Below are positions 6,183-25,321 of a stretch of DNA of 64,000 nucleotides, piece after piece. The notes beneath the pieces were generated by a model. The model made no database searches. It was not told the DNA's origin and saw nothing but the letters and a program-made list of their open reading frames with translations. Position 1 is the stretch's first letter. Every line of letters begins with the position of its first letter. A program made the position numbers and the translations under genes. This stretch comes from Tabrizicola sp. Lineage in GTDB: Bacteria > Pseudomonadota > Alphaproteobacteria > Rhodobacterales > Rhodobacteraceae. The DNA lies in contig NZ_JAEULO010000035.1 of the NCBI RefSeq assembly GCF_016793705.1, positions 186,001 through 250,000 on the forward strand. Direction: 5' to 3'.

Positions 6183-7016
6183 TCAGGTCTTGAACCAGAG
6201 CCGATCGGCATTGCCATTCAGGATGCCGTTACGCTCGTCCGGGGTGAGGTCAGACAACAAGGCCTGCGTGGCGGCGACCCATTCGGGCAGAGAGGATTGC
6301 AGGGTACAAACCGGGCTATCCGACCCCCAGACGACACGACCGGGGCCGAGCGCTTCGATCAGATGGCGCGTGTAGGGTTGCAATGTCTGCAAGGTCCAGT
6401 CCGGCGGGCCATAGGCGCTGATCCCGGAAAGCTTCGCGTTCACGTTCGGCCGTTCGGCAAGGCGACTGATCCAGCCTGCCCAGTCAGCGAAGGCGCCCGA
6501 TGCGATATCGGGCACACCGCAATGGTCCAGAATGAACATCGTGTCGGGGCAGGCATCCACCAGTGCAACCGCCAGCGAAAGCTGGCGTTGCAGCATGCAG
6601 ATGTCGAACGGCAGCCCCAACTGCCCAAGTTTCCGAAGATTCCGGCGAAAGCGCTCTTCCTGCGATACGGCATCGGGAACAACATGCAGCACCCGTCGCA
6701 CGCCCCGCACGACCCGTCGATCGACGCGGTCGAGCCAGGCCTCGAAACCGTCGGATTCGGGTCGGGCAGCACTGATCGCCCCGCGCAGCAGACTTCCTGG
6801 TCGCGCCATCAGCTCTGCGATCCAGGCAGTTTCCGCGTCGATGTCGGTTTCCGCGACATCAACCTCCATATGCAGGACGCTCGTGATCCCGACCCGCGCC
6901 GCGGTGGTTGCGTAGGAATCGAAATCCCAGTCACGATCCAGGGCCGGCACACCGGCCAGCCAAGGGTAGCTCAGTCGCGACCGGTCGATGAGGTGCAGGT
7001 GCGTGTCAAAGATCAT
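6183..7016 (-). CDS. Amidohydrolase-family sugar lactonase (L-fucono/rhamnono-lactonase type)
   Basis: A 277-residue amidohydrolase-2 (COG3618-type) TIM-barrel protein. FDTHLHLID near the N-terminus gives the metal-binding H6-x-H8. A conserved LDHCGVPD segment and WGSDSP (late Asp) follow. Members open aldono-lactones such as L-fucono-1,5-lactone and L-rhamnono-lactone. The ATG at 7014-7016 is preceded by GGGGGA and gives the family start; the longer frame adds a non-homologous leader. It is divergent from the sugar ABC transporter operon, which also encodes a mutarotase, a sugar-acid dehydratase, an SDR and an FAH hydrolase, so it fits the lactone-opening step. The exact substrate is not determinable. 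Confidence 0.8.
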   Translation of the reverse strand: MIFDTHLHLIDRSRLSYPWLAGVPALDRDWDFDSYATTAARVGITSVLHMEVDVAETDIDAETAWIAELMARPGSLLRGAISAARPESDGFEAWLDRVDRRVVRGVRRVLHVVPDAVSQEERFRRNLRKLGQLGLPFDICMLQRQLSLAVALVDACPDTMFILDHCGVPDIASGAFADWAGWISRLAERPNVNAKLSGISAYGPPDWTLQTLQPYTRHLIEALGPGRVVWGSDSPVCTLQSSLPEWVAATQALLSDLTPDERNGILNGNADRLWFKT

Positions 7017-7111
7017 TCCATCCCCCGGATTTCGCCTGCGCGGTGCACTGTCGCATCTAAACGCAGCTTGACGCAGTCTTTCAACTACATTTATACATGA
7101 AACATCGTTCC

Positions 7112-7122
7112 GGATATGAAAT
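7112..7122. promoter_or_regulatory. Candidate IclR-type operator in the divergent lactonase/ABC promoter
   Basis: GGATATGAAAT lies in the 164-base gap between the lactonase and the solute-binding gene. It matches ten of eleven bases of GGATTTGAAAT, the complement of part of 20371-20387 upstream of the IclR gene. The surrounding gap is AT-rich (TTTATACATGAAAC). This suggests one regulator acts at both ends of the island; it is inferred from similarity only. Confidence 0.35.
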
Positions 7123-7180
7123 TGATAGCGGTGCGAGGTGCGGTCGCCGACGGCACGGCACAAACCAGGGAGGAAATGCC

Positions 7181-8491
7181 ATGAAGACATTCGCGGCCAG
7201 CAGCGCGCTGGCACTTTTGGCGGGGCTTGGCCTGGCCTCGGGCGCGCTCGCCGATGGCGAGTATGCCGGGGTCACCATCGACGCCAAGCTGATCGGCGGG
7301 CAGCAGTACGAGGCGCTTTATGCCCGCATCCCGGAATGGGAGGCCAAGACCGGCGCCAAGGTGAACATCGTCAGCCAGAAGAACCACTTCGAGCTGGACA
7401 AGGAGTTCAAGGCCGACATCGCCGCCGGTGCAATCACCTGGTGCGTGGGGTCGAACCATTCCTCCTTCGCCCCGCAGTACCCGCAGCTTTACACCGACCT
7501 GACACCGCTTCTGCCCGCCGAGACGATCGCGGGCTTTGTCCCCGCGAACATCGAGGCGGCGACGCTGGACGGCAAGCTGGTGATGCTGCCGCGCGCCCAG
7601 TTCGACGTCTCGGCGCTGTATTACCAGAAGTCGCTTTACACCGACCCGGCCAAGGCCGAGGCGTTCAAGGCGAAGTATGGCTATGACCTGGCCGTGCCGG
7701 AGACCTGGGACCAGTTCCGCGACCAGGCAATGTTCTTCGCCGATCCGCCCAACTTCTACGGCACCCAGTACGCCGGCAAGGAAGAGGGCATTGCCGGTCG
7801 GTTCTACGAGATTGTCGTGGCCAATGGCGGCAAGATGTTCAACGACGACTTCTCGCCCGCCTTCAACTCGCCCGAGGGCAAGATGGCGCTGCAATGGTTC
7901 GTCGATCTCTACAAGGCGGGGGCCGTGCCGCCGGGGACCACCAACTATCTGTGGGATGACCTTGGCAACGGCTTTGCCTCGGGCACCATCGCGCTGAACC
8001 TGGACTGGCCGGGCTGGTCGGGCTTCTTCAACGATCCTGCGGCATCGAAGGTCGCCGGCAATGTAGGCGTGGCACCCGCGCCAAAGGGAGCCGCGGGCGT
8101 GCGCACGGGCTGGTCAGGCTTCCACGGATTTTCCGTCACCGAAGCCTGCGCAAACAAGGAGGCCGCCGCGTCGCTGGTCGACTTCCTGACCAACGAGGAC
8201 AGCCAGGCGCTGGAATCCGCTGCCGGACCGCTGCCGACGCGGACGGCCGTCTGGGACAAGGTGATCGCCGACGCCGCATCCGACCCCTACAAGGCCGAAG
8301 TGCTGGCCGCCTTCCAGGAAACCGCGAAGACCGCCTTCCCGGTGCCGAAGACTCCTTACTGGATCGAGGCGACGAACCTGATCTACCCGGAACTTCAGGC
8401 GGCCATCCTGGGCGACAAGACGGTGGACGAGGCATTGCAGACCGCCTCTGACGCCGTGGACAGCCTGATGCGCGAGAACGGGGTCTATTGA
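7181..8491 (+). CDS. Sugar ABC transporter solute-binding protein (CUT1 type)
   Basis: A 436-residue periplasmic extracellular-solute-binding family 1 protein. A Sec signal peptide MKTFAASSALALLAGLGLAS...ALA ends at about residue 24. The mature part has the cluster-B fold pattern (TWDQFRDQAMFF, GTIALNLDWPGWSGFF, SLVDFLTNEDSQA). It should deliver a sugar or sugar acid to the two permeases downstream. The start at 7181 is fixed by a strong GGGAGGAA site 5-12 bases upstream and by the signal peptide. A 12-bp hairpin between this gene and the first permease would favour higher levels of the binding protein. Confidence 0.88.
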   Translation: MKTFAASSALALLAGLGLASGALADGEYAGVTIDAKLIGGQQYEALYARIPEWEAKTGAKVNIVSQKNHFELDKEFKADIAAGAITWCVGSNHSSFAPQYPQLYTDLTPLLPAETIAGFVPANIEAATLDGKLVMLPRAQFDVSALYYQKSLYTDPAKAEAFKAKYGYDLAVPETWDQFRDQAMFFADPPNFYGTQYAGKEEGIAGRFYEIVVANGGKMFNDDFSPAFNSPEGKMALQWFVDLYKAGAVPPGTTNYLWDDLGNGFASGTIALNLDWPGWSGFFNDPAASKVAGNVGVAPAPKGAAGVRTGWSGFHGFSVTEACANKEAAASLVDFLTNEDSQALESAAGPLPTRTAVWDKVIADAASDPYKAEVLAAFQETAKTAFPVPKTPYWIEATNLIYPELQAAILGDKTVDEALQTASDAVDSLMRENGVY

Positions 8492-8510
8492 TCCTGTCCT
8501 GAACCTGAAT

Positions 8511-8541
8511 GGAAGCGGCGCCCTTCGCTGGCGCCGCTTCC
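8511..8541 (+). promoter_or_regulatory. Strong intercistronic stem-loop in the sugar ABC operon
   Basis: A perfect 12-bp inverted repeat GGAAGCGGCGCC / GGCGCCGCTTCC with a seven-base loop lies between the solute-binding gene stop (8491) and the permease start (8566). No T-run follows. Such hairpins after binding-protein genes usually protect the upstream mRNA from 3' exonucleases or partly terminate transcription, giving excess binding protein. The role here is inferred. Confidence 0.65.
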
Positions 8542-8565
8542 AGCTTGCCTCGCGGAAGGACCCCG

Positions 8566-9462
8566 ATGTACCAGATGCGCCTACCCCCGTGGCTGGTCCT
8601 GTTGTTGCCGGCATTCGTGATCCTGCTTGCAGTGGTCGCGATTCCGCTGGTTCTCAGCCTCTATTCCAGTTTCACCGCCTTCCAGCTGACCCGGCCCGAG
8701 ACGATCACCCGCTGGATCGGGACTTTCAACTACGGGAAGGCGATGGGCGATGCTAACTTCTGGGCAGCGTTCGGGCGCGCGGTTCTTCTCCTGACGCTGG
8801 CCCTCAACCTTGAGATGCTACTGGGACTTGGCCTGGCGGTGATGGTCGCCAAGGTCACGCTCGGGCAGCGCCTGCTGCGCACGATGATGATGTTCCCGAT
8901 GATGTTCTCGCCCATCTTGGTGGGCTTCCAGTTCAAGTTCATCTTCAATGACAACGTGGGCCTTCTGAACAACGCCCTGCAATCGCTGGGACTGACCGAC
9001 GTGGCGATCCCCTGGCTGGTCGACGGCAACCTCGCCTTCCTGGCCATCGTGGCTGCCGAGGTCTGGACCTCGACCTCGGTCTTCGCAATCCTGATCCTTG
9101 CCGGCATTTTCGCGATCCCCCAGGATCCGGTCGAGGCAGCGCGGGTGGATGGCTGTACGCCCTGGCAGACCTTCCGCTATGTGACGCTGCCGTTCCTGAT
9201 GCCCTTCATCTATATCGCGATGGCGATCCGGTCGCTGGACGTGGCTCGGGCCTATGACATCGTGCAGGTGATGACCGCGGGCGGCCCCGCCCGCAGGACC
9301 GAACTTTTGTGGACGCTGATCGGGCGCACCGGCTATGTCGACGCGCGGATGGGATACGCCAATGCGATGGGGTACATCGCCATCCTGCTGTCGATCGTCT
9401 TCACCGTCTACTTCTTCCGCAAGCTGACCACGGCGCGGACCAGTCTTGGCATGGGGGACTGA
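8566..9462 (+). CDS. Sugar ABC transporter permease 1 (CUT1, MalF/UgpA type)
   Basis: A 298-residue inner-membrane protein with about six helices, starting with PWLVLLLPAFVILLAVVAIP. The cytoplasmic EAA loop is EAARVDGCTPWQTFRYVTLP, which couples to the ATPase. It pairs with the permease that follows. I chose the ATG at 8566 (MYQMRLPPW) because the longer frame would run back through the intercistronic hairpin. The gene ends at 9462, four bases before the next start. Confidence 0.88.
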   Translation: MYQMRLPPWLVLLLPAFVILLAVVAIPLVLSLYSSFTAFQLTRPETITRWIGTFNYGKAMGDANFWAAFGRAVLLLTLALNLEMLLGLGLAVMVAKVTLGQRLLRTMMMFPMMFSPILVGFQFKFIFNDNVGLLNNALQSLGLTDVAIPWLVDGNLAFLAIVAAEVWTSTSVFAILILAGIFAIPQDPVEAARVDGCTPWQTFRYVTLPFLMPFIYIAMAIRSLDVARAYDIVQVMTAGGPARRTELLWTLIGRTGYVDARMGYANAMGYIAILLSIVFTVYFFRKLTTARTSLGMGD

Positions 9463-9466
9463 CACC

Positions 9467-10333
9467 ATGGACCAAGGCCGCACGCACCGAATCCGCCGCC
9501 GACTGCTGAAGGGGGGCCATTTCCTTGGCCTATTCCTCGCGATGAGCATCATCTGTCTGCCCGGCCTCTGGGTCGTGCTGAACAGCTTCCGGCCCACGGT
9601 CGAGATCATGGCCAAGCCGCCGGTCTGGATTCCGACCGAGCTGAACCTCGACCACTACCGCGCGATGTTCGGCGGCGTCGGCGAGGGCGGTGTGCCGGTG
9701 CTGACCTACTTCTGGAACTCGATGATCATCTCGCTGACTTCCACCGCCATAGCGCTTTTGGTCGGCATGGCGGGCGGCTACGCCTTTGCGCGGCATCGCA
9801 TTCCCGGCAAGGCGGCAATCTTCGTCGGCCTGATGGTCACGCGGGCGGTGCCGGGGGTGGCGCTGTCGCTGCCGCTCTTCATCCTGTTCGGGCGGATTGG
9901 CATCATCGACACGCATTTCGGCATGATCCTCGTCTATGTCGCGCTGAACGTGCCTTTCACAATCTGGCTGATCGACGGTTTCTTTCGGCAGGTCCCGAAG
10001 GAACTGGCCGAGGCGGCCGAGATCGACGGCTGCACCCGCTGGCAGGCCTTCTGGAAAGTGGAATTCCCGGTGGCGCGGGCGGGCATCGCCAGCGCGGGGA
10101 TCTTCGCCTTCCTGACCTCGTGGAACGAATATGCGCTGGCCAGTCAGCTGACCCGGTCGCTCAACTCGAAGACCATGCCCGTCGGGCTCATGGACTTCAC
10201 CTCGCAGTTCACCCTCAACTGGGGCGGCATGTGTGCGCTGGCGGTGCTGATGATCATCCCCGCGCTGGTGCTGACCTTCCTTGTGCAGAAACACCTCATC
10301 GCCGGCCTGACCTTCGGCGGCGTGAAAGGATAA
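9467..10333 (+). CDS. Sugar ABC transporter permease 2 (CUT1, MalG/UgpE type)
   Basis: A 288-residue second permease with the EAA loop AEAAEIDGCTRWQAFWKVEF and a C-terminal segment typical of MalG/UgpE proteins (FLVQKHLIAGLTFGGVKG). A GGGGGA ribosome site lies in the end of the previous gene, and the ATG at 9467 follows its stop by four bases. It forms the transmembrane pore with permease 1. The ATPase gene begins three bases after its stop. Confidence 0.88.
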   Translation: MDQGRTHRIRRRLLKGGHFLGLFLAMSIICLPGLWVVLNSFRPTVEIMAKPPVWIPTELNLDHYRAMFGGVGEGGVPVLTYFWNSMIISLTSTAIALLVGMAGGYAFARHRIPGKAAIFVGLMVTRAVPGVALSLPLFILFGRIGIIDTHFGMILVYVALNVPFTIWLIDGFFRQVPKELAEAAEIDGCTRWQAFWKVEFPVARAGIASAGIFAFLTSWNEYALASQLTRSLNSKTMPVGLMDFTSQFTLNWGGMCALAVLMIIPALVLTFLVQKHLIAGLTFGGVKG

Positions 10334-10336
10334 GTC

Positions 10337-11422
<1,086 letters not shown>

Positions 11423-11423
11423 C

Positions 11424-12536
11424 ATGGCGGTCATCGAACGGGCCGAGGCCTTCCTTGTCGATCTGGTGCCCAAGGTCAAACGCACCGACGCGATCCAGAG
11501 CTTCAAGAGCCAGGAGACGATCTTCGTCACCCTGACCGACGCCGAGGGCGCGACCGGCAGGGGCTATTCCTACACCATCGGCGACGGCGGGCCTTCGGTC
11601 CTGGCGCTCTTGCATCACACGCTTTTGCCCGCGTTGATGGGACGCGAGGGCGCGATGATCGAAGCGATCTGGCGCGATCTTCTGTTCACGAGCCATGCCA
11701 CGGCGGTCGGGCCGATCATGTCGCTGGCGCTCGCCGCCATCGACACCGCCTTGTGGGATCTGCGCGGCAAGCGGACCGGACTGCCGCTGCACGTACTGGC
11801 GGGCGGGGCGAAGCCGCGGGTGCCGATGTATTCGACCGAAGGTGGCTGGTTGCATCTGGAACCGGCGGCCCTTGTCGAAGATGCGCTGGCCATGCGCGCC
11901 CAGGGCTTCCTGGGGTCGAAGATCAAGATCGGCAAGCCGACGGTCGCAGGCGATGCCGCGCGGCTGACGGCGGTGCGGACCGCCCTTGGCCCGGATTACG
12001 AGATCATGACCGACGCCAACCAGTCGATGACCGGGCCGGAAGCCGCGCGCCGCCTGCCGCTGCTGGAATCGCTGAACATCGGCTGGTTCGAGGAACCCCT
12101 TCCCGCCGATGACATCGCCGGCCATGCCCGCCTGGCCCGCCAGTCGCGGGTGCCCATCGCGCTGGGGGAAAGCCTTTACTCTCCCGGCCAGTTCGCCGAT
12201 TACATCGCGGCCGGGGCTTGCGGGATCGTGCAGGCCGATGTGGCACGGGTGGGCGGCATCACCCCCTGGCTCAAGGTCGCGCATATGGCCGAGGCGCATA
12301 ACCTGGCGATCTGCCCGCATTTCCTGATGGAGCTTCACGTCAGCCTGGTGTGCGCCGTGCCGAACGCGCCCTGGCTGGAATATATCCCGCAACTGGACGA
12401 GATCGCCGCCCCCATGGCGCGCGAGGGTGGCTATGCGCTGGCCCCCAAGGCTCCGGGTATCGGGATCGACTGGGACGAAGCCGCATTGCAGGCCCGCATG
12501 TCCGAAGGCAGCCAGTTTGAAGTGAGGCCCGCATGA
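11424..12536 (+). CDS. Mandelate-racemase/enolase superfamily sugar-acid dehydratase
   Basis: A 370-residue enolase-superfamily protein of the mandelate racemase subgroup. The catalytic lysine pair is K166-x-K168 (GSKIKIGK). Metal ligands are D197 (MTDANQ), E223 (WFEEP) and E249 (GES). The His-Asp dyad is D272 (QADVARVGG) and H299 (CPHF). Such enzymes dehydrate aldonates such as L-fuconate or L-rhamnonate to 2-keto-3-deoxy acids. In this operon it would act after the lactonase and before the SDR at 15854. Its stop overlaps the mutarotase ATG. The exact substrate is uncertain, since this subgroup also has racemases. Confidence 0.82.
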   Translation: MAVIERAEAFLVDLVPKVKRTDAIQSFKSQETIFVTLTDAEGATGRGYSYTIGDGGPSVLALLHHTLLPALMGREGAMIEAIWRDLLFTSHATAVGPIMSLALAAIDTALWDLRGKRTGLPLHVLAGGAKPRVPMYSTEGGWLHLEPAALVEDALAMRAQGFLGSKIKIGKPTVAGDAARLTAVRTALGPDYEIMTDANQSMTGPEAARRLPLLESLNIGWFEEPLPADDIAGHARLARQSRVPIALGESLYSPGQFADYIAAGACGIVQADVARVGGITPWLKVAHMAEAHNLAICPHFLMELHVSLVCAVPNAPWLEYIPQLDEIAAPMAREGGYALAPKAPGIGIDWDEAALQARMSEGSQFEVRPA

Positions 12537-12862
12537 AGCGCTATGGTTCCGTCATCGGCCTGTCGGAAGAGGGCAAGGCCGAATACCGCAAGCTGCACGC
12601 GGCCGTCTGGCCTAGCGTGCTCGCCAAGATCGCGGAGTGCAATATCCGCAACTACTCGATCTTTCTGAAAGAGCCGGAGAACTTGATGTTCTCCTACTTC
12701 GAATACCACGGCACCGACTTTGCCGCCGATATGATGAAGATGGCCGCAGACCCCGAGACGCAGCGCTGGTGGGCGGTCAACATGCCATTGCAGCGCCCGC
12801 TGGACAGCCGGAAGGATGGCGAGTGGTGGGCCGAGATGACGGAAGTCTTCCATGTCGACTGA
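12533..12862 (+). CDS. L-rhamnose mutarotase-like protein (RhaM family)
   Basis: A 109-residue ferredoxin-like protein of the RhaM/DUF718 family, which interconverts the anomers of 6-deoxy-sugars. The residues that act in E. coli RhaM are present at the same positions (Y18 and H22 in EYRKLHAAVW). The substrate-stacking tryptophan pair is in QRWW near 79-80. The ATGA overlap with the dehydratase gene implies coupled translation. It points to a 6-deoxyhexose such as L-fucose or L-rhamnose, or a related pyranose, as the transported substrate. Confidence 0.85.
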   Translation: MKRYGSVIGLSEEGKAEYRKLHAAVWPSVLAKIAECNIRNYSIFLKEPENLMFSYFEYHGTDFAADMMKMAADPETQRWWAVNMPLQRPLDSRKDGEWWAEMTEVFHVD

Positions 12863-13913: not shown

Positions 13914-14352
13914 ACAGGTGAAATACTACGAGGACTTCGTCGTGGGCGAAGGCCGTGAAACCACGGGCCGCACCATCACCGAGACGGATTTCGTCGTCCA
14001 TGCCGGCCATTCCGGCGACTTCTTCCCGCATCATCTGGATGTCGAGTTCTGCAAGACGTTGCCATTCGGCCAGCGCATCGCGCATGGAACCATGGTCTTC
14101 ACCATTGGCGTCGGTTTGACTGCGACCATCATCAATCCGGTCGCCTTCTCTTACGGCTATGACAGGTTGCGCTTTGTGAAGCCGGTTTTCATCGGCGACA
14201 CGATCCGGTCGCGGGTCGAGATCATCGCGGTCGAGCCGATGGAGAAGCGCCCCGGCTTCGGCCGCGTGACCGAACGGCTGACCGTCGCCAACCAGCAGGG
14301 CGATACGGTGCTCGTCGCCGATCATATCTACATGGTGGAGCGTCGCCCATGA
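13906..14352 (+). CDS. MaoC-family (hot-dog) dehydratase with intact active site
   Basis: A 148-residue single hot-dog domain. The R-hydratase motif is complete as SGDFFPHHLD, with catalytic D38 and H43. MaoC proteins hydrate or dehydrate enoyl-CoA thioesters. The C-terminal part [19 protein letters not shown] is nearly identical to the second MaoC protein at 17463-18032. The ATG lies inside the end of the Gfo/Idh gene (8-base overlap), and its stop forms ATGA with the SAF-domain gene. A CoA-type enzyme is unexpected in a free-acid sugar pathway, so its substrate is unclear. The CoA-transferase across the island may supply the thioester. Confidence 0.85.
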   Translation: MLEQVKYYEDFVVGEGRETTGRTITETDFVVHAGHSGDFFPHHLDVEFCKTLPFGQRIAHGTMVFTIGVGLTATIINPVAFSYGYDRLRFVKPVFIGDTIRSRVEIIAVEPMEKRPGFGRVTERLTVANQQGDTVLVADHIYMVERRP

Positions 14353-14651
14353 CCGGACCTTTCCTGCTCTTGCACCCGGACGACAACGTCCTGGTCGCCC
14401 GCGCCACTGCACCGGAAGGCACCGAGGTCGCGCTTGAAACCGGCGCTGTCCGGCTGTCGCAGTCGATCCCGATGGCCCACAAGATCGCTCGCCAGCCCAT
14501 CGCGGCGGGCGACACCGTCCGCAAGTATGGCATGCCCATCGGCATCGCCACCGCCGATATCGCTGCCGGGTCGCATGTCCACGTCCACAACCTCCGCTCC
14601 GGCTATACGCCAAGCGTGGTTCTTCAGGATGCCGACGGGAGGACAGGCTGA
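14349..14651 (+). CDS. UxaA-family dehydratase small subunit (SAF domain)
   Basis: A 100-residue SAF domain, equivalent to the N-terminal part of altronate/galactarate dehydratases and to the small subunit SuyA of (R)-sulfolactate sulfo-lyase. It has the usual pattern IPMAHKIARQPIAAGDTVRK and YGMPIGIATADIAAGSHVHV. It must act with the large subunit encoded next, whose start overlaps its stop as TGATG. The split into two genes is as in SuyAB and some L-/D-galactarate-type lyases. The substrate cannot be read from the sequence. Confidence 0.85.
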   Translation: MTGPFLLLHPDDNVLVARATAPEGTEVALETGAVRLSQSIPMAHKIARQPIAAGDTVRKYGMPIGIATADIAAGSHVHVHNLRSGYTPSVVLQDADGRTG

Positions 14652-15844
14652 TGCAGGGCTGGCTACGCGCCGACGGGCGCAAGGGTATCCGCAACACGGT
14701 GGTCGTGGCCTATCTGGTGGAATGCGCGCATTTCGTCGCGTCGGAGATCGTGGCGGGCTTCCGCGGCCGGGATGTGCAGTTGATCGGGTTCCCGGGGTGT
14801 TTCCCAAACGAATACGCCGCCCGGATGATGGAACGGCTCTGCACGCACCCGAACGTGGGTGCGGTTCTCTTCGTCTCGCTTGGCTGTGAGAGCTTTGACA
14901 AGGTGCGGGCAAGCAATGCGGTCGAAGCCTCGGGCCGCCCGGTCAAGACGCTGGTGATCCAGAAGGCGGGGGGAACCCGGGCCACGGTCAAGGCGGGGCA
15001 GGACTGGGTGGAAGGCGCGCTGGCCGAGATCGCCACCGCCGTGCGGGTGCCGATGGCTGCAAGCGATCTGGTGATCGGCACGGTTTGCGGTGGCTCGGAC
15101 GGCACCAGCGGCATCTCTGGCAATCCGGCGGCGGGGCGGGCCTTCGACCTGCTTGTCAGTGAAGGCGCTGCGTGTATCTTCGAGGAAACCGGCGAGTTGA
15201 TCGGCTGCGAGGAGATCATGGCCTCGCGCGCCGTCACTCCGGAGCTAGGCCAGCTTCTGCGCGACAGCGTGCAGAAGGCGGAGCGTTACTACGCGACGCT
15301 GGGCTATGGCAGTTTTGCCGCCGGCAATGCCGCGGGCGGGCTTTCGACCATCGAGGAGAAATCGCTGGGGGCCTACGTAAAATCCGGTGACAGTCCGATT
15401 TCCGGCATCATCAAGCCCGGCGACCTGCCGCCGCGCGGCGGGCTTTACCTGATGGATGTGGTCCCCGACGGCGAGGTGCGCTTCGGCTTCCCGAACATCA
15501 GCGACAATGCCGAGATCGTCGAGATGATCGCCTCGGGCGCGCATCTGACGCTGTTCGTCACCGGGCGTGGCTCGGTTGTTGGCTCGGCGATTTCGCCGGT
15601 CATCAAGATCTGCGCCAACCCCGACACCTTCCGCGCGCTGGCTGAGGACATGGACGTCAACGCAGGCGACATCATCGAGGGCCGCCGCAGCATCGATGAG
15701 GTGGGTCGCGAGATCCGGGATCTGGTGCTTGCGGTCGCCGGCGGACGTCAGACCGCCTCCGAGACGCTGGGGCACCGGGAGTTCATCCTGACCTACAAGA
15801 GCTTTGACCCGATTGGCCCGGCCTGCCTGCCGGCCAGCGCATAA
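14651..15844 (+). CDS. UxaA-family dehydratase/lyase large subunit
   Basis: A 397-residue protein matching the C-terminal catalytic part of UxaA/GarD iron-dependent dehydratases and of SuyB. Typical motifs are RNTVVVAYLVEC, FPGCFPNEYA, SLGCESFD, CGGSDGTSGISGNPAAG, IFEETGELIG and GHREFILTYKSFDPIGPAC. It probably eliminates water (or another group) from a hydroxy acid. The operon already has an enolase-type dehydratase, so this may act on a second substrate or stereoisomer. It is directly coupled to the SAF subunit gene, and the SDR gene follows after nine bases. Confidence 0.85.
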   Translation: MQGWLRADGRKGIRNTVVVAYLVECAHFVASEIVAGFRGRDVQLIGFPGCFPNEYAARMMERLCTHPNVGAVLFVSLGCESFDKVRASNAVEASGRPVKTLVIQKAGGTRATVKAGQDWVEGALAEIATAVRVPMAASDLVIGTVCGGSDGTSGISGNPAAGRAFDLLVSEGAACIFEETGELIGCEEIMASRAVTPELGQLLRDSVQKAERYYATLGYGSFAAGNAAGGLSTIEEKSLGAYVKSGDSPISGIIKPGDLPPRGGLYLMDVVPDGEVRFGFPNISDNAEIVEMIASGAHLTLFVTGRGSVVGSAISPVIKICANPDTFRALAEDMDVNAGDIIEGRRSIDEVGREIRDLVLAVAGGRQTASETLGHREFILTYKSFDPIGPACLPASA

Positions 15845-15853
15845 GGACATCAG

Positions 15854-16591
15854 ATGGAACGACTGACCGGAAAGACCGCATTGATCACGGCCGCGGGGCA
15901 GGGCATTGGCCGCGCCACCGCCGAGCGTATGGCGCTCGAAGGCGCGACCGTGATCGCGACCGATGTGAACGATGCCGCACTGGCCGAGCTGGCACAGGTG
16001 CCGGGCATCGTGGCACGCAGGCTGAATGTGCTGGACGCCGCCGCCATTGCGGCCTGCGCGAAGGAGGTCGGAGCCATCGACATCCTGTTCAACTGCGCGG
16101 GCGTGGTCCACAACGGCACGGTGATGGAAGCATCAGAGAGCGACTGGGACTTTGCTTTCGACCTGAACGCCAAGGCGCAGTTCCGCATGATCCGCGCCTT
16201 CCTGCCGGGGATGCTGGCAAAGGGGGGCGGTTCCATCATCAACATGTCCTCGGTCGCGGGACCGAAGAAGGGGCCGGTCAACCGCGCGGTCTATTCGGCA
16301 TCGAAAGCGGCGGTGGTGGGGCTGACGCGAGCGGTCGCGGCGGACTACGTGACGCAAGGCATCCGCTGCAACGCGATCTGTCCCGGGACGGTGGACAGCC
16401 CAAGCCTGCACGAGCGGCTGCGCGCCACGGGCGACTATGACGGCGCGCTCAAGGCGTTCATCGCGCGGCAGGCCATGGGACGGCTGGGCCGCGCCGAGGA
16501 GGTTGCGGCGCTGGTCTGCTACCTGGCCTCGGACGAGGCCGCCTTTACCACCGGAACCGAGCATGTCATCGATGGCGGCTGGACGACCTGA
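15854..16591 (+). CDS. SDR, 2-keto-3-deoxy-L-fuconate dehydrogenase type
   Basis: A 245-residue NAD-dependent SDR. The nucleotide motif is TAAGQGIG (residues 12-19). The catalytic set is NMSS (131-133), Y147 and K151. The segment RCNAICPGTVDSPSLHERL is the hallmark of the subfamily that holds bacterial 2-keto-3-deoxy-L-fuconate dehydrogenase and animal DHRS6. It should oxidise the C4 hydroxyl of 2-keto-3-deoxy-L-fuconate (or rhamnonate) to the 2,4-diketo acid, which the FAH-family product of the next gene cleaves. This subfamily match is the strongest clue to the pathway. Confidence 0.88.
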   Translation: MERLTGKTALITAAGQGIGRATAERMALEGATVIATDVNDAALAELAQVPGIVARRLNVLDAAAIAACAKEVGAIDILFNCAGVVHNGTVMEASESDWDFAFDLNAKAQFRMIRAFLPGMLAKGGGSIINMSSVAGPKKGPVNRAVYSASKAAVVGLTRAVAADYVTQGIRCNAICPGTVDSPSLHERLRATGDYDGALKAFIARQAMGRLGRAEEVAALVCYLASDEAAFTTGTEHVIDGGWTT

Positions 16592-16601
16592 GGAGATCAC
16601 G

Positions 16602-17441
16602 ATGAAACTTGTGCGATATGGAGCGCGGGGCGCCGAGAAGCCCGGGATGCTGGATGCGGACGGTCGCCTGCGCGATCTGTCGGCGCATGTGCCCGATATC
16701 GCGGGTGCGGTGCTGGCCGACCTTGCCCCGTTGCAGGCACTTGACCCGGAAAGCCTGCCGCTTGTCCCCGGCACCCCGCGGATCGGCGCCGCAGTGGGCC
16801 AGATCGGCAAGTTCATCTGCATCGGGCTGAACTATTCCGACCACGCGGCCGAGTCCGGCATGGCGGTCCCGCCAGAACCGGTGATCTTTGCCAAGTACAC
16901 CTCGGCGGTCTGCGGGCCGGATGATCCGATCATCATCCCGCGCGGTTCGGAAAAGACCGACTGGGAGGTTGAGCTGGCCTTCGTCATCGGCAAGTCCGGC
17001 AAGTACATCGCTGAGGCCGATGCGATGGACCACGTGGCCGGGTTCATGGTCTGCAATGACGTGTCGGAGCGGGCTTATCAGACCGAGCGTTCCGGCCAAT
17101 GGTCAAAGGGCAAGTCCAGCGACAACTTCGGCCCCATCGGCCCCTGGCTGGTCACGCGGGACGAGGTGCCGGACCCGGGCAAGCTGCGCATGTGGCTGGA
17201 CGTGAACGGCAAGCGGATGCAGGACGGCAGCACCGCGACAATGGTCTACAAGGTGCCCTTCCTCGTGTCCTACCTGTCGCAGTTCTTCACCCTGCATCCG
17301 GGCGACGTGGTCAGCACCGGGACGCCTCCGGGGGTCGGGCTGGGGATGAAGCCGCCGCAGTATCTGAAGCCGGGCGACGTGGTGGAGCTTGGGATCGAAG
17401 GGCTGGGCCGACAACGTCAGGTCTGCATCGCCGACAGCTGA
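16602..17441 (+). CDS. FAH-family 2,4-diketo-3-deoxy-L-fuconate hydrolase type
   Basis: A 279-residue fumarylacetoacetase-family protein. The metal ligands are E122 and E124 (DWEVELAFVIG) and D153 (CNDVSERAYQ). SSDNFGPIGPWLV and STGTPPGVGLGMKPP are typical of the group that cleaves 2,4-diketo-3-deoxy-L-fuconate or rhamnonate to pyruvate and L-lactate. The start is set by AGGAG at 16591-16595, inside the previous stop region. Together with the preceding SDR it completes the non-phosphorylating 6-deoxyhexose route. It is the last gene of the plus-strand operon, and a terminator follows. Confidence 0.88.
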   Translation: MKLVRYGARGAEKPGMLDADGRLRDLSAHVPDIAGAVLADLAPLQALDPESLPLVPGTPRIGAAVGQIGKFICIGLNYSDHAAESGMAVPPEPVIFAKYTSAVCGPDDPIIIPRGSEKTDWEVELAFVIGKSGKYIAEADAMDHVAGFMVCNDVSERAYQTERSGQWSKGKSSDNFGPIGPWLVTRDEVPDPGKLRMWLDVNGKRMQDGSTATMVYKVPFLVSYLSQFFTLHPGDVVSTGTPPGVGLGMKPPQYLKPGDVVELGIEGLGRQRQVCIADS

Positions 17442-17444
17442 CTG

Positions 17445-17480
17445 AAAGGGTCCCGTGGCTGATCAGCTGCGGGACTTTTC
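17445..17480. terminator. Probable bidirectional terminator between converging operons
   Basis: A GTCCCG / CGGGAC stem is extended by A/T and wobble pairs (AAAGG ahead, TTTTCC after). It lies between the FAH gene stop and the end of the opposing MaoC gene, and partly overlaps the latter. The A-run and T-run on either side would allow termination in both directions. Confidence 0.5.
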
Positions 17481-18032
17481 CTTTGCCGCCATCCTTTCCC
17501 GCGCCTCTTGGGCGAACGGGGCGGGATCGCGGTAAAGCGCCGTCAGCAGGTGTTCGGCGTAAAGCACCAGTTCGCCCTCGGCCTTGTAGACGGAATAGCT
17601 GACCTTGAGCTTGCCCATCGTCTTGTTGTGGACCTCTTTCGACAGGTTCTCGCGGATCGTGTAGATCGTGTCGCCGATGAACACCGGCTTGATGAAGCGC
17701 AGCCGGTCATAGCCGTAGCTGAACGAATTCAGGCAGTTCGTCGCCGCAAGCCCAAGGCCCAGCGAAAAGACGAAGGCTCCCGCCACCAGCCTGCGCCCGA
17801 AGACGCCTTCCTCGCGGGCGAAGGTCTCGTCGCTGACATAGGGATGGTGGTCCATGACGAGGCTGTTGAACAGCATCGACTCGCCTTCGGCGATGGTGCG
17901 GCGGATCGAACGGATCCTGTCACCAATCGCGAAGTCCTCGAAATACCAGTCCTCGGAGTTCCAGACCGGGATCGCCGCATGGTCCTGCGGCAGACCCGCC
18001 ATCGCACGCGCATGAACGCCGATCTCAGCCAT
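17463..18032 (-). CDS. Second MaoC-like hot-dog protein, catalytic His replaced
   Basis: A 189-residue MaoC-type protein with a 30-residue N-terminal and a charged C-terminal extension. It shares [19 protein letters not shown] with the other MaoC of this island. At the R-hydratase motif it reads [11 protein letters not shown]61 is kept, but the histidine position holds V66. It may therefore not be a normal enoyl-CoA hydratase, and may instead bind a partner or use other residues. It is three bases downstream of the CoA-transferase gene and convergent with the FAH gene. Confidence 0.8.
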
Positions 18033-18035
18033 GGC

Positions 18036-19175
18036 TCAGGTCCATCCCTTTGAAAGAAGCGCATTTGCATCGCCTAGGGCAGGGGCGGCCTTTGGGGCTG
18101 CGGGACGCTGTCCGTCGAATTTGATCGGCAGCCGGGTGGTCTTCAGCCGCACGTCTCCGCGTTCGACCTCCTGCAGCATGTCCAGCGTTTCCATCATGTC
18201 CATCGCGGCCAGCTCGCGCCAGTCCAGCACCGGCGCGGCCCAGATGTCGGCGGCGACGAAGGCCTCCATCCATTCGGCGCTTGGTTTCGTGGCGAGCGAT
18301 GCCGCCAGTCCGGCCTTGATGCGATCGCGCGCGGTGAAGGGGTCGAGCGAGGCGGTTTCCCTGTCCAGTCCGGTGATCCCGGCCAGAATATCCAGCTTGC
18401 CCATCGCGATGGCGATATGACCATCCGCTGTCGCATAGACCCCGTAGGGGGCCGCCAGATAGGCATGCGCAGGGTTCTGTGCCGACCGCCGGGGCGTCCG
18501 CCCGCCGTCGTTCAGCCAGGTGGTCAGCAACTCGAACTGAAGGTCGGCCAAGACTTCCATCAGCGAGGTTTCGACCAACCCGCCGATCCCATGGCGTTCG
18601 CGGCGGAAGAGGAGCGCCAGCACACCATGCGCCAGCGCAGCACCCGCGAGCACGTCGGCGATGGGCAGGCCGACGGCAACCGGCCCGTCTTCCGCGCCGC
18701 CCGTCAGCCACATCATGCCCGACCGGGCCTGCGCCAGCAGATCCTGGCCGGGCAGGTCCACCCAAGGACCCTCGGTGCCGTAGCCGGTGACCGAGCCGTA
18801 GACCACTTTCGGGTTGATAGCGCGGACAGCCTCGTATCCGAACCCCAGCCGGTCCATCACGCCGGGCCGGAAGTTCTGCAACACCACATCCGCGCCGCGC
18901 ACAAGATCGCGGATCGCCGCGCGGTCGGTTTCGGACTTCATGTCCACGGCAACCGACCGCTTGTTGCGGTTGATCGCGTGGAAGATCGTGCTTTCCCCGC
19001 CGATCCTCGTGTCGGTGAGGTACAGGTGGCGCGACAGATCGCCAGTGCCGATCCGCTCGACCTTGACGACATCGGCACCCATGTCGGCCAGCTTCAGCGC
19101 GGCATAGGGCCCGGCCAGGAACTGGCTGAAGTCGAGGACGCGCAGGCCCTCAAGCGGCAGGGGGGCGGTCGTCAT
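18036..19175 (-). CDS. Class III CoA-transferase (CaiB/BaiF family)
   Basis: A 379-residue family III CoA-transferase. It has GLRVLDFSQFLAGPYAALKLADMGADVVKVE at its N-terminus (residues 10-40), NFRPGVMDRLG near 101-111, GYGTEGPW, and the catalytic aspartate D145 in GQDLLAQARSG. It should move CoA between carboxylic acids, giving a thioester for a MaoC-type enzyme. The CoA donor and acceptor are unknown. Its ATG overlaps the stop of the leaderless solute-binding-like gene, and the second MaoC gene follows, so the three form one operon opposite the sugar pathway genes. Confidence 0.9.
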   Translation of the reverse strand: MTTAPLPLEGLRVLDFSQFLAGPYAALKLADMGADVVKVERIGTGDLSRHLYLTDTRIGGESTIFHAINRNKRSVAVDMKSETDRAAIRDLVRGADVVLQNFRPGVMDRLGFGYEAVRAINPKVVYGSVTGYGTEGPWVDLPGQDLLAQARSGMMWLTGGAEDGPVAVGLPIADVLAGAALAHGVLALLFRRERHGIGGLVETSLMEVLADLQFELLTTWLNDGGRTPRRSAQNPAHAYLAAPYGVYATADGHIAIAMGKLDILAGITGLDRETASLDPFTARDRIKAGLAASLATKPSAEWMEAFVAADIWAAPVLDWRELAAMDMMETLDMLQEVERGDVRLKTTRLPIKFDGQRPAAPKAAPALGDANALLSKGWT

Positions 19176-20311
19176 TCCGGGAAGCTCTCGATGAAGCGTC
19201 GGTCCAGCGCGTCCAGCGCCGCAGCGTGCGAGGTGCGGCCGGTGATCGCATCAAGAACGATATGGCTGCCCGTCTCCTGGAAGGCCATGTAACCCTTGTG
19301 GCGCGGTCGCAGCCAGGCGCACTCATGCGTCAGGCGGGTGTCGGCGTAAGCATTGCCCACGGCGGAGTTCACGGAAGCATCGCCCCAGGCGCGGGCGTTG
19401 CCGGGCTGCCCGTTGTGCTTTGTATAGAGCCCGCGCTGCACCGTCGCCGAGGCGAGCCAGACCGCGAAGCGGGTGCAAAGCTCGGGCTGGGCGGTCCGGG
19501 CCGAGACGGCGATCCCGGTCCCACCGAGGGCCGACCCGATGGGACCGCCATGGCCAATGGCGGGCATGTCGTGGAAGGCGATGCGGTTGGACCGATAGCC
19601 CTCTCGCGCGTAGGGCGCATAAAGGTAGGTCAGCGGGATGATCCGGCTCCGGGAGCTTTCGGCCAAGGCGTTCAGCGCGGCAATCGGGTCCATCTTTTGG
19701 CAGGCCGGATCGACCAGCTCGGCCAGCGCTTGAAGCGCCGACAGCACGGCAAGGCCGGTTCTGCGGTCGACCAGCGGCCCCTTGGTCACCGCACAGGGAT
19801 CGCCCAGGTTGGCGGCGAGGGTGAAGAAGCCCATCAGGACATGCGGTGGTCGCAGCGGCCAGAGGACGGCCCCGTCGCGCGCGGCGGACATGACCTGATC
19901 CCAGCGCAGGGCCGGCGTCGGTTGCAGGTCGGGCCGGATCGCCTGGACCTGCGTCGCCGCGTCGATCGGCAGGGCCCATTGCCGTCCAGCCAGCCGGTAG
20001 GAAGCGAAGCTCTTGCCCACGGTGTCGGCCTCGAGCTGCAACAGGCTGTCGGCATCGGCATGCAGGTCGAGCGGCAAGAGGCACCCGTCGGCCACCACGG
20101 CGCCGACATGGGGATGGTCGATCACCATGAGGTCATAGGCTGCAGCAAGTTCATCCACCGGGGTGGATTCGAACCCTTGAAGCGACCGCTTGTCCCAGTC
20201 GATGCGGACACCGGGATGCAGCCTGGCAAACTCCGCCGCCGCCGCCACGACCGGATCATAGCCCCGTGGATCGGACCAAGTCATGCCCTTCAGGACGATT
20301 TCCGTTGCCAA
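19172..20311 (-). CDS. Leaderless solute-binding-protein-like protein
   Basis: A 379-residue protein with the fold pattern of family 1 extracellular solute-binding proteins (WSDPRGYDPVVAAAAEFAR, DLMVIDHPHVGAV, LPIDAATQV, FAVWLASATVQRGLY). It has no signal peptide or lipobox; the N-terminus is MATEIVLKGMTWSDP. The start is a TTG at 20309-20311 with GGAGG seven bases upstream. Codons further upstream do not encode a leader. It is therefore probably cytoplasmic, where it could bind the pathway substrate or a metabolite for the CoA-transferase encoded four bases into its end. No permease accompanies it. Its function is unknown. Confidence 0.8.
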   Translation of the reverse strand: MATEIVLKGMTWSDPRGYDPVVAAAAEFARLHPGVRIDWDKRSLQGFESTPVDELAAAYDLMVIDHPHVGAVVADGCLLPLDLHADADSLLQLEADTVGKSFASYRLAGRQWALPIDAATQVQAIRPDLQPTPALRWDQVMSAARDGAVLWPLRPPHVLMGFFTLAANLGDPCAVTKGPLVDRRTGLAVLSALQALAELVDPACQKMDPIAALNALAESSRSRIIPLTYLYAPYAREGYRSNRIAFHDMPAIGHGGPIGSALGGTGIAVSARTAQPELCTRFAVWLASATVQRGLYTKHNGQPGNARAWGDASVNSAVGNAYADTRLTHECAWLRPRHKGYMAFQETGSHIVLDAITGRTSHAAALDALDRRFIESFPE

Positions 20312-20370
20312 ATCCGGTCCTCCACCTTCTGTCGCTTTGTAGCAAGATACAATTTACAAGTAAAACGTAT

Positions 20371-20414
20371 TTTCACATTTCAAATCCAGCGGCGGATTTG
20401 ATTTCACATTTGAA
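20371..20414. promoter_or_regulatory. Candidate IclR operator in the divergent promoter
   Basis: The 135-base AT-rich gap between the solute-binding-like gene and the IclR gene holds a perfect dyad CAAATCC-N6-GGATTTG (20381-20400). It is flanked by two direct copies of TTTCACATTT (20371-20380 and 20402-20411). Similar GGATATGAAAT occurs at 7112-7122. This is the likely autoregulatory and operon-control site of the adjacent IclR protein. Confidence 0.5.
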
Positions 20415-20446
20415 CCCATGCTATCGCTGGCGAAGGGAGAGACGGC

Positions 20447-21265
20447 ATGGCGCGCAGGGATGAGGACGACGACCAGTTCGACGAGGGCGAGGGTCCGGAA
20501 GACAAGTATCGGGCGCCGGCCCTGTCGAAAGGGCTCGACATCCTGGAACATCTGGCAAGCGAGGCCGAGGGCAAGACCCAGGCCGAGATTGCGAAGACGC
20601 TGGGGCGCACCACCTCCGAGATCTTCCGGATGCTGATGGTCCTGCGCAAACGCGGCTATGTGCATCTGAACGAGGAGGATGACCGTTACAGCCTGACGAC
20701 CAAGCTGTTCGAGATCGCCCATCGCCATCCGCCGGTGCGCCGCCTGACCAGCATCGCGGGCGAGGCGATGCAGAAGCTTGCCAACCGCATCAACCAGTCC
20801 ATGCACCTGGCGATCCTGCATTCGGGCAAGGTCCTGGTGATCGCGCAGGTGGACTGCAACGACAACAACATCACCGCAGTGCGTCTGGGCGCGCAGATAT
20901 CGCTGTACGACACGTCCTCCGGCCGCGTGCTTGCGGCCTGGATGGACGAGGACGCCCTCGCGGCTCTGCTGGTGGATGCGGGACCTGGCAGTGGGGACCG
21001 ACAGGCCGCCTTTATCACCGATCTGACTGCCGTTCGGTCAATGGGTTATGCCCAGAACGAGTCCTTCACCATCGCAGGTGTGACCAACATTTCCGCGCCC
21101 GTCCGTGACATGACAGGTCGCGTTGTTGCGGCGATCACCATTCCGTTCATCCGGCGCCTTTCGGGGACCAACACGGTATCGGTCGACGGAGCGAGAGAAG
21201 AGCTGCTCGTGATGGCTGCCACAGTGTCGAAGCGGTTGGGGGCCGGAGCAACAGGCACGACCTGA
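20447..21265 (+). CDS. IclR-family transcriptional regulator of the catabolic island
   Basis: A 272-residue IclR regulator. It has an acidic N-terminal tail (residues 1-22), a winged helix-turn-helix near 25-85 (GLDILEHLASEAEGKTQAEI, GRTTSEIFRMLMVLRKRGYV), and the IclR ligand domain (LYDTSSGRVLAAWM, NISAPVRDMTGRVVAAITI). The start is set by AAGGGAGAG upstream. It is divergent from the CoA-transferase operon across a dyad-rich gap. IclR proteins typically control such sugar-acid operons and respond to a pathway intermediate. Confidence 0.88.
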   Translation: MARRDEDDDQFDEGEGPEDKYRAPALSKGLDILEHLASEAEGKTQAEIAKTLGRTTSEIFRMLMVLRKRGYVHLNEEDDRYSLTTKLFEIAHRHPPVRRLTSIAGEAMQKLANRINQSMHLAILHSGKVLVIAQVDCNDNNITAVRLGAQISLYDTSSGRVLAAWMDEDALAALLVDAGPGSGDRQAAFITDLTAVRSMGYAQNESFTIAGVTNISAPVRDMTGRVVAAITIPFIRRLSGTNTVSVDGAREELLVMAATVSKRLGAGATGTT

Positions 21266-22300: not shown

Positions 22301-22301
22301 G

Positions 22302-23534: not shown

Positions 23535-23535
23535 G

Positions 23536-24495: not shown

Positions 24496-24559
24496 GATTG
24501 CAATCCTCCTATAGCGGCCGAATCCGCATCCTGATCCCAGCATATATCTTGCATTTTAT

Positions 24560-24569
24560 TTGTCGACAA
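24560..24569. promoter_or_regulatory. GntR operator candidate before the hydroxyproline operon
   Basis: A perfect ten-base palindrome TTGTCGACAA lies in an AT-rich region 65 bases upstream of the deaminase ATG. Nine of its bases (TTGTCGACA) recur just upstream of the gntR start at 25322-25330. Spacing and repetition fit a FadR-type GntR operator. Confidence 0.55.
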
Positions 24570-25311: not shown

Positions 25312-25321
25312 GCCGCCCCGC

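What the first reader, a model, noticed from the sequence alone, without database searches (positions are those of the whole stretch)
6183..21265. Catabolic island joining an L-fucose-type pathway to CoA chemistry
The lactonase, enolase-type dehydratase, KDF-dehydrogenase-type SDR and FAH hydrolase make a full non-phosphorylating 6-deoxyhexose route. The same plus-strand operon also carries a MaoC and a split UxaA dehydratase. An opposing operon under the same IclR control region has a class III CoA-transferase, a second MaoC and a leaderless binding protein. No known L-fucose or L-rhamnose pathway needs CoA thioesters or a UxaA lyase. The island may serve a different or additional substrate, for example a branched or sulfonated sugar acid.
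Basis: partly seen in the sequence, partly recalled or inferred. Interest (0 to 1): 0.7.

Follow-up and report, generated by a model that had tools for sequence, protein, structure and literature searches.

The report
Fucose operon with CoA-linked sugar chemistry
A bacterial gene island for burning fucose-like sugars is real and conserved in many relatives, and it carries a little-noticed module, a CoA-transferase paired with a sugar-binding protein that seems to stay inside the cell plus a hydratase, which suggests that some bacteria break down sugar acids while they are attached to coenzyme A.

Summary
One argument falls: split UxaA proteins have been proposed as L-fuconate dehydratases (Watanabe 2019, PMC6336799), and in relatives the pair alternates with the enolase-type FucD. 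The CoA-transferase is paired with a solute-binding protein without export signal (0 of 119 loci, against 65 of 68 importer proteins from the same loci). In 39 loci drawn without regard to neighbours, a CoA-transferase lies within 10 kb in 35 and a MaoC or crotonase hydratase in 35; within 1.5 kb of 30 ordinary binding-protein genes there were none. The trio also sits in other sugar clusters, where crotonase replaces MaoC. A FucD homologue elsewhere in this genome, and separate fucose-type genes in several others, hint at an additional substrate. Most likely the trio makes CoA thioesters of a sugar acid and eliminates a group at C3, as CaiB and CaiD do for carnitine. Substrate and activity are not shown. 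No description of the trio turned up in the literature searches.

The parts
6183..7016 (-). COG3618-type amidohydrolase, likely sugar lactonase (L-fucono-lactonase family)
   Evidence: Pfam Amidohydro_2 4.6e-52; NCBIfam FuconLaconase 72 bits, below the cut-off of 400
7181..8491 (+). exported solute-binding protein of a sugar ABC importer
   Evidence: no Pfam match at 0.001, but phmmer to MalE3 5.8e-33; signal sequence seen by eye
8509..9462 (+). ABC permease 1
   Evidence: Pfam BPD_transp_1 4.6e-15
9446..10333 (+). ABC permease 2
   Evidence: Pfam BPD_transp_1 8.1e-20
10337..11422 (+). ABC ATPase (MalK/UgpC type)
   Evidence: Pfam ABC_tran 2.6e-33 and OB_MalK 1.8e-11
11424..12536 (+). MR_MLE enolase-superfamily protein; acid-sugar dehydratase, epimerase or cycloisomerase of unknown substrate
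   Evidence: Pfam MR_MLE_C 8.7e-64; K166, K168, D197, E223, E249, D272, H299 invariant in 64 of 64 distinct homologues of 45% identity or more; closest solved protein by phmmer 3,6-anhydro-L-galactonate cycloisomerase
12533..12862 (+). RhaM-family 6-deoxyhexose mutarotase
   Evidence: Pfam rhaM 5e-31
12852..13913 (+). Gfo/Idh/MocA dehydrogenase, likely aldose 1-dehydrogenase
   Evidence: Pfam GFO_IDH_MocA 3.8e-13; K106, H186, H189, D192 invariant in 70 of 70
13906..14352 (+). MaoC-A, hydratase/dehydratase with intact catalytic Asp and His
   Evidence: Pfam 9e-22; D38 and H43 in 72 of 72; closest solved structure 4ffu
14349..14651 (+). UxaA small subunit (SAF domain)
   Evidence: Pfam SAF 1.8e-8
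14651..15844 (+). UxaA large subunit, likely heteromeric L-fuconate dehydratase
   Evidence: Pfam GD_AH_C 5.8e-79; 63-69% identical to large subunits in fucose-type clusters
15854..16591 (+). SDR, likely L-2-keto-3-deoxyfuconate 4-dehydrogenase
   Evidence: Pfam adh_short_C2 9.6e-58; function from position in the cluster
16602..17441 (+). FAH-family hydrolase of a 2,4-diketo-3-deoxy-6-deoxyhexonate
   Evidence: NCBIfam DhyDRhmHlse 404 bits (cut-off 500) and Pfam FAA_hydrolase 7.1e-73
17463..18032 (-). MaoC-B, hotdog protein lacking the catalytic His; possible non-catalytic partner
   Evidence: Pfam 9.3e-13; Val in place of His in 51 of 51
18036..19175 (-). class III CoA-transferase
   Evidence: Pfam CoA_transf_3 2.8e-102; Asp145 in 119 of 119 distinct homologues of 45% identity or more
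19172..20311 (-). leaderless (cytosolic) solute-binding protein; its stop overlaps the CoA-transferase start (ATGA)
   Evidence: Pfam SBP_bac_1 5.2e-7; AlphaFold model pLDDT 93.3, TM about 0.8 to sugar-binding proteins; no signal peptide by a simple rule in 119 of 119 homologous loci; overlap
20371..20414 (.). two boxes TTTCACATTT(C/G)AA, candidate IclR operator
   Evidence: kept with at most one changed base per box in the three relatives aligned; the only exact copies in the window, although looser matches in the whole window are no more than chance
20447..21265 (+). IclR-family regulator
   Evidence: Pfam IclR_C 1.9e-23

Best explanation
The island is an L-fucose-type (6-deoxyhexose) oxidative catabolic locus joined to a CoA module. 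Shared front end: the ABC importer brings in the sugar, the RhaM-type mutarotase supplies the right anomer, the Gfo/Idh/MocA enzyme oxidises C1, and the amidohydrolase opens the lactone to an aldonate. Branch 1, known chemistry: the split UxaA enzyme dehydrates L-fuconate to 2-keto-3-deoxyfuconate, the SDR oxidises C4, and the FAH enzyme cleaves the diketo acid to pyruvate and lactate. Branch 2, inferred: the class III CoA-transferase, working with the cytosolic solute-binding protein as its sugar-acid-binding partner, transfers CoA to an aldonate that the ordinary dehydratases do not take (another stereoisomer, or one with a substituent such as O-methyl at C3). MaoC-A, perhaps paired with the catalytically incomplete MaoC-B, eliminates the C3 group from the thioester. 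The transferase then passes CoA on to the next substrate, and the released keto acid joins branch 1. Shown: the genes, their catalytic residues, the predicted fold and missing leader of the binding protein, the tight coupling of the transferase and binding-protein genes, and co-conservation. Inferred: every substrate and reaction of branch 2, the substrates of branch 1 in this organism, and any contact between the binding protein and the transferase.
For: Gene set conserved: of 80 genome-contig loci (at most 10 kb flanks, many contigs cut, so lower bounds) 77 have CoAT, 72 MaoC, 74 IclR, 45 GFO, 45 RhaM, 44 MR_MLE. In 39 fetched of 42 distinct places from two genome samples: CoAT within 10 kb 35 of 39 (adjacent on the same strand 29), MaoC or ECH 35 of 39; control, 30 ordinary SBP_bac_1 loci with 1.5 kb flanks: 0 of 30. 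105 same-strand CoAT/SBP-like neighbour pairs in 119 loci, median 5 nt from stop to hit start, in both orders (73 and 32). Leader: 0 of 119 against 65 of 68. Sugar-binding-protein fold predicted intact. Catalytic residues invariant. The smallest locus, L111, reads IclR-lactonase-RhaM-GFO-CoAT-SBP-like-MaoC. Crotonase takes the place of MaoC in other sugar clusters. A FucD homologue lies elsewhere in the own genome, and several other genomes with the module have separate fucose-type gene groups.
Against: No assay, expression or mutant data for these genes was seen. By my own recalled stereochemistry L-fuconate fits an R-specific MaoC at C3, but its C2 configuration does not fit a syn elimination without prior epimerisation. 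14 of 19 fucose-type loci also hold an MR_MLE/UxaA/FucD/ManD-family gene, so a further dehydratase is not needed on counting grounds. 4 of 39 loci lack a CoA-transferase within 10 kb and 4 lack a hydratase; the Microvirga locus has the binding protein beside mannonate dehydratases with no CoA-transferase. The second FucD in the own genome stands beside an SDR but no other island homologue was recognised in 20 kb around it. Of eight genomes or records asked, G245, G036 and the Streptomyces plasmid have neither a close UxaA pair nor a close FucD. No CoAT/SBP-like fusion was found.
Confidence: 0.42

Rival explanations
1. The island is a plain L-fucose operon. The CoA-transferase and MaoC proteins handle a downstream or side product (for example lactate or another short hydroxy acid), and the cytosolic binding protein is a regulator or sensor acting with IclR.
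For: iclR lies next to, or one gene away from, the binding-protein gene in many loci. Each step of the known non-phosphorylating route III has a candidate without the CoA genes.
Against: The CoAT/SBP-like/hydratase trio recurs with a LacI regulator and other sugar genes. The binding-protein gene is coupled to CoAT in both gene orders. The minimal locus L111 keeps mutarotase, dehydrogenase and lactonase and shows no SDR or FAH match.
Confidence: 0.2
2. The CoA module serves an unrelated acid, such as a plant or algal hydroxy acid, that only co-occurs with fucose in the same polymer or glycoside.
For: In Croceibacterium the module sits inside a polysaccharide locus with fucosidases and galactosidases; a Methylobacterium relative sits beside an AMP-binding protein.
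Against: Dehydrogenases (GFO/SDR/ADH families, 28 of 39), mutarotases (17 of 39) and lactonases (14 of 39) are frequent within 10 kb (SDR matches are unspecific), and the binding protein has a sugar-binding-protein fold.
Confidence: 0.18
3. The split UxaA pair is a sulfolactate-type sulfo-lyase and the island degrades a sulfonated sugar.
For: SuyAB is heteromeric like this pair (stated in PMC6336799, passage).
Against: Related UxaA pairs sit with FucP, aldo/keto reductase or lactonase genes, and the pair alternates with FucD in otherwise similar clusters (15 UxaA, 4 FucD, 5 neither, 0 both). No sulfonate gene was recognised in the island.
Confidence: 0.03

Closest known systems
Non-phosphorylating L-fucose pathway, route III (Watanabe and co-workers; passages of PMC6336799 and PMC11199699 seen)
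   Same: Mutarotase, lactonase, L-fuconate dehydratase (UxaA heteromer or FucD), KDF 4-dehydrogenase, diketo-acid hydrolase, ABC importer
   Different: C1 dehydrogenase would be a Gfo/Idh/MocA enzyme; extra MR_MLE enolase, CoA-transferase, two MaoC proteins and a cytosolic binding protein
CaiB/CaiD carnitine system (class III CoA-transferase plus crotonase; recalled)
   Same: Same logic: CoA is moved onto a 3-hydroxy acid, a hydratase removes water from the thioester, CoA is recycled
   Different: Sugar context, a cytosolic solute-binding protein beside the transferase, MaoC or crotonase as hydratase
Itaconate RipA/RipB and mesaconyl-CoA systems (class III CoA-transferase plus MaoC; recalled)
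   Same: CoA-transferase with MaoC hydratase encoded together
   Different: No CitE-type lyase recognised in the island; sugar transporter and sugar dehydrogenases instead
Sugar-binding proteins of ABC importers (LpqY, trehalose/maltose-binding protein, SmoF)
   Same: Two-domain fold, TM about 0.8
   Different: No signal peptide by a simple rule in 119 of 119 loci; coupled to a CoA-transferase gene, not to permeases

Membership tests
Non-phosphorylating L-fucose route III | L-fuconate dehydratase present | tested here: inconclusive
   UxaA pair related (63-69%) to pairs in fucose-type clusters; a 75% relative in Rhizobium sp. 11515TR lies in a cluster where no lactonase or FAH was recognised; no assay
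Non-phosphorylating L-fucose route III | 2,4-diketo-3-deoxy acid hydrolase (FAH) | tested here: inconclusive
   NCBIfam DhyDRhmHlse 404 bits, cut-off 500
Non-phosphorylating L-fucose route III | L-fucono-lactonase | tested here: inconclusive
   FuconLaconase 72 bits, cut-off 400; Amidohydro_2 4.6e-52
Non-phosphorylating L-fucose route III | aldo/keto-reductase type dehydrogenase of the kind in the Sphingomonas cluster | tested here: not met
   best own-genome match 30% over residues 4-247 of 341, E 2.3e-9; a Gfo enzyme is the candidate in the island, an SDR beside the second FucD another
Non-phosphorylating L-fucose route III | growth on, or induction by, L-fucose | not testable with these tools
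   no culture data
Heteromeric UxaA-type L-fuconate dehydratase | separate SAF and GD_AH C-terminal subunits, adjacent genes | tested here: met
Heteromeric UxaA-type L-fuconate dehydratase | identity to the P. mimosarum pair A19U_RS0100650/655 | not tested
   sequence not fetched; a Caballeronia relative beside AKR, lactonase-like and FAH genes is 67% identical
SuyAB sulfo-lyase | sequence closer to SuyAB than to UxaA | not tested
   no SuyB sequence was compared
Class III CoA-transferase | fold family and catalytic Asp (position recalled) | tested here: met
   Pfam 2.8e-102; Asp145 119 of 119
R-specific enoyl-CoA hydratase (MaoC) | catalytic Asp and His of the GDxxPxH motif (motif recalled) | tested here: met
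   MaoC-A: 72 of 72
R-specific enoyl-CoA hydratase (MaoC) | the same motif in MaoC-B | tested here: not met
   His replaced by Val in 51 of 51
ABC-importer solute-binding protein | export signal | tested here: not met
   0 of 119 loci by a simple hydrophobicity rule, against 65 of 68 importer proteins
ABC-importer solute-binding protein | two-domain binding-protein fold | tested here: met
   predicted model

The most novel reading that the evidence does not exclude
A family of catabolic modules, not found described in the searches made, works on sugar acids as CoA thioesters: a solute-binding protein that lost its export signal became the substrate-binding partner of a class III CoA-transferase, and a MaoC or crotonase hydratase, chosen by the C3 stereochemistry of the sugar, carries out the elimination. 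It would be a further, CoA-dependent way to dehydrate or demodify sugar acids beside the metal-dependent enolase, IlvD/EDD and UxaA families.
Probability: 0.33. Interest if true: 0.85.

Novelty: new variant of a known kind. Interest (0 to 1): 0.66.

Why it matters
Sugar catabolism is normally taught as phosphate or free-acid chemistry. A conserved module that binds sugar acids inside the cell and puts them on CoA would explain how bacteria use modified 6-deoxyhexoses from plants and algae, and would suggest functions for MaoC and CoA-transferase genes that now carry only family names (MaoC-A has a solved relative, 4ffu, listed only as 'oxidase'). I know of no other case (recall) of an ABC-type binding protein recruited as an enzyme partner in the cytosol. 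It is directly testable in laboratory rhizobia.

Tried and rejected
Considered and dropped: (a) that the CoA genes are passengers: they are co-conserved. (b) That UxaA is unexplained: literature and context suggest L-fuconate. (c) A shared IclR box upstream of the plus-strand operon: no match near 7.1 kb; in the alignment of that upstream region the fourth row was a wrong stretch and only three rows count. (d) A CoAT/SBP-like fusion as direct proof of contact: none in 119 loci. (e) That the trio is simply the missing aldonate dehydratase: only partly tenable, because 14 of 19 fucose-type loci hold another dehydratase-family gene; of 15 loci of the other types 4 do. ILVD/EDD and MR_MLE genes were searched in 8 genomes; reading the coordinates, none lies within 10 kb of their nine non-fucose-type binding-protein genes. 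(f) Papers: asked for the trio or its chemistry and for fucose, UxaA and mutant-fitness work (open-access library only); some returned nothing, and the listings of 78 and 104 showed no relevant title. Of the papers, passages only were read; the Mol. Microbiol. 2019 paper of Watanabe on the altronate dehydratase family was seen only in a reference list. (g) The S. meliloti cluster is recalled as SMb21101-21113 with L-fucose mutant phenotypes; no call confirmed this (one search showed no annotation, no paper). [quoted passage not shown] meliloti is SMc02774 of another transporter (PMC3454389).

Control flanks (1.5 kb) are shorter than the 10 kb of the samples, though 30 of 39 sample loci have CoAT within about 1.1 kb. 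The 30 control loci were those the tool handed out of 190 matches in 8 genomes; one (L185) lies in a module locus. In one search a further control (17 of 29; one cut locus dropped) took the longest ORF, which is not always the binding protein. Residue counts used distinct homologues of at least 45% identity and 85% coverage, and hits with internal stops were dropped. In one search L034 is counted as 'neither' although one search shows a UxaA small-subunit match there, and L113, whose FucD lies further away, is not counted. Three of 42 distinct places were not fetched (the partial second G112 hit, G401:C1, G397:C17).


Full report
What is there. The region 6183-21265 holds a plus-strand operon (importer binding protein, two permeases, ATPase, MR_MLE enolase, RhaM mutarotase, Gfo/Idh/MocA dehydrogenase, MaoC-A, UxaA small and large subunits, SDR, FAH hydrolase), a divergent lactonase at its start, a facing minus-strand operon (leaderless binding protein, class III CoA-transferase, MaoC-B) and iclR. 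The CoA-transferase start overlaps the stop of the binding-protein gene as ATGA.

Conservation. A search with a profile of the leaderless binding protein returned its best 80 loci (of 533 relatives, itself a capped list) from genome contigs. Within at most 10 kb of flank, often cut by contig ends, 77 of 80 have a CoA-transferase, 72 MaoC, 74 IclR, 63 a permease of the importer type, 51 the lactonase, 45 GFO, 45 RhaM and 44 MR_MLE. The binding protein is patchy within the genus: six of 31 other same-genus genomes match it. Full copies of the island lie in two of them, G029 and G023, and G013 holds a broken version.

The UxaA puzzle. In Shinella, Labrenzia, Nitratireductor and a Roseateles-labelled plasmid the same cluster contains a gene annotated L-fuconate dehydratase (FucD) and no UxaA pair. 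Among 24 clusters (some of them the same genome in two collections) with at least 4.8 kb behind MaoC-A, 15 carry UxaA, 4 FucD, 5 neither and none both. Watanabe et al. 2019 (PMC6336799, passages) assign such a pair in Paraburkholderia mimosarum to L-fuconate dehydration from gene context, and report that the L-fucose cluster there is induced by L-fucose and not by D-arabinose. So UxaA here is of a known kind.

The CoA puzzle. To avoid choosing loci by their neighbours I took places from two genome samples: 18 of 292 genomes of the order and 21 of 397 of the phylum (the own genome included in both) match the binding-protein profile at E 1e-30 or better. Of 42 distinct places outside the window's own genome, 39 were fetched. 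A CoA-transferase lies within 10 kb in 35 of 39, directly adjacent on the same strand in 29; a MaoC or crotonase (ECH) hydratase within 10 kb in 35 (MaoC 22, ECH 15, two with both). Beside 30 ordinary SBP_bac_1 genes of eight of these genomes (1.5 kb flanks) none of the three was found. Over 119 loci (80 plus 39) there are 105 same-strand neighbour pairs of CoA-transferase and binding protein, median 5 nt apart, in both gene orders (73 and 32).

The binding protein is cytosolic by sequence. With one simple rule for signal peptides, 0 of 119 loci pass, against 65 of 68 importer binding proteins from the same loci. The AlphaFold model (pLDDT 93.3, pTM 0.90) is a complete two-domain binding protein, nearest to LpqY, a trehalose/maltose-binding protein and the sulfoquinovose binder SmoF. 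So it still looks able to bind a sugar-like ligand, but in the cell interior.

The enzymes look active. Among distinct homologues of at least 45% identity, the class III Asp is kept in 119 of 119, the MaoC-A Asp and His in 72 of 72, the GFO Lys/His/Asp set in 70 of 70, the MR_MLE set in 64 of 64. MaoC-B has Val in place of the catalytic His in 51 of 51 and may be a non-catalytic partner.

The trio is a module. It recurs with other sugar genes: with GFO, an isomerase-like TIM barrel, aldose epimerase, SDR, crotonase and a sugar importer in Sinorhizobium; with crotonase, TRAP transporter, SDR and ADH in Jannaschia; with MaoC, a large FAH protein related to 2-keto-3-deoxy-D-arabinonate dehydratase and an NADP aldehyde dehydrogenase in Streptomyces; with fucosidases and galactosidases in Croceibacterium. 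The nearest hydratase follows the clade of the binding protein: of 24 fucose-type binding proteins 19 have MaoC, 2 ECH and 3 none; of the 15 of other types 13 have ECH, 1 MaoC and 1 none. Since the two hydratase families act on opposite C3 configurations of CoA thioesters (recalled), this exchange suggests that the module acts on 3-hydroxyacyl-CoA compounds whose stereochemistry depends on the sugar. The smallest locus, in Rhodospirillaceae bacterium R-7, reads IclR-lactonase-RhaM-GFO-CoAT-SBP-like-MaoC.

Is it for ordinary L-fucose? Eight genomes or records with the module were asked for close relatives of the UxaA large subunit and of FucD. G708 (R-7), G526, G584 and G596 have FucD at 63-82% identity, G561 and G596 a UxaA large subunit at 68-69%, all more than 100 kb from the module or on another contig; G245, G036 and the Streptomyces plasmid have neither. 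Around these second dehydratases lie FucD-FAH-SDR-AKR in G708, fucosidase-FucP-AKR-UxaA-RhaM in G561, FucD-RhaM-AKR-FucP-AH in G526, FAH-SDR-AKR-UxaA in G596, and only a lactonase beside FucD in G584. The window's genome has a FucD homologue, 75% identical to the Shinella one, beside an SDR on another contig, with no other island homologue recognised within that 20 kb stretch. The module may therefore extend the range to another stereoisomer or a substituted 6-deoxyhexose. Which one is unknown; an O-methyl group at C3 is my guess, because its elimination from a thioester would give 2-keto-3-deoxyfuconate and join the known route.

Limits. No activity, expression or mutant phenotype was seen. 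Substrate specificity cannot be read from these sequences. Four of 39 sampled loci have no CoA-transferase within 10 kb and four no hydratase, and a distant relative (Microvirga) has the binding protein without a CoA-transferase. The C2 stereochemistry of L-fuconate (recalled) does not fit a simple syn elimination by MaoC. Lactonase, hydrolase and enolase scores are below the NCBIfam cut-offs for named enzymes.

Noticed in passing
window 21299-25404 (-): Neighbouring operon of proline-racemase family protein, DAO oxidoreductase, DHDPS-family protein and GntR regulator; looks like a hydroxyproline catabolic cluster (function by recall).
   Followed up: no
L029 (G013:C2:92000-110500): A same-genus relative carries a decayed copy of the island: binding-protein gene in pieces with a stop, several genes only partly matched.
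   Followed up: no
L024, L026, L141, L143, L144: Rhodobacterales variant with a second enolase-superfamily gene and an RraA-like match (about 30%) between RhaM and UxaA; in L024, L141, L143 and L144 MaoC-B lies directly beside the binding protein.
   Followed up: no
L117 (Microvirga ossetica plasmid) 11998-13170: Leaderless binding protein without CoA-transferase, between a mannonate dehydratase and an SMP-30 lactonase; suggests that the cytosolic binding protein can also serve other sugar-acid enzymes.
   Followed up: no
L148-L151, L176, L116: Related module with crotonase, in several cases two CoA-transferases, ADH and SDR, often ALDH, in other Alphaproteobacteria; substrate unknown.
   Followed up: partly
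window 17463-18032 (-): MaoC-B has invariant His63 and Tyr65 near the missing catalytic His; it may have another activity rather than none.
   Followed up: no
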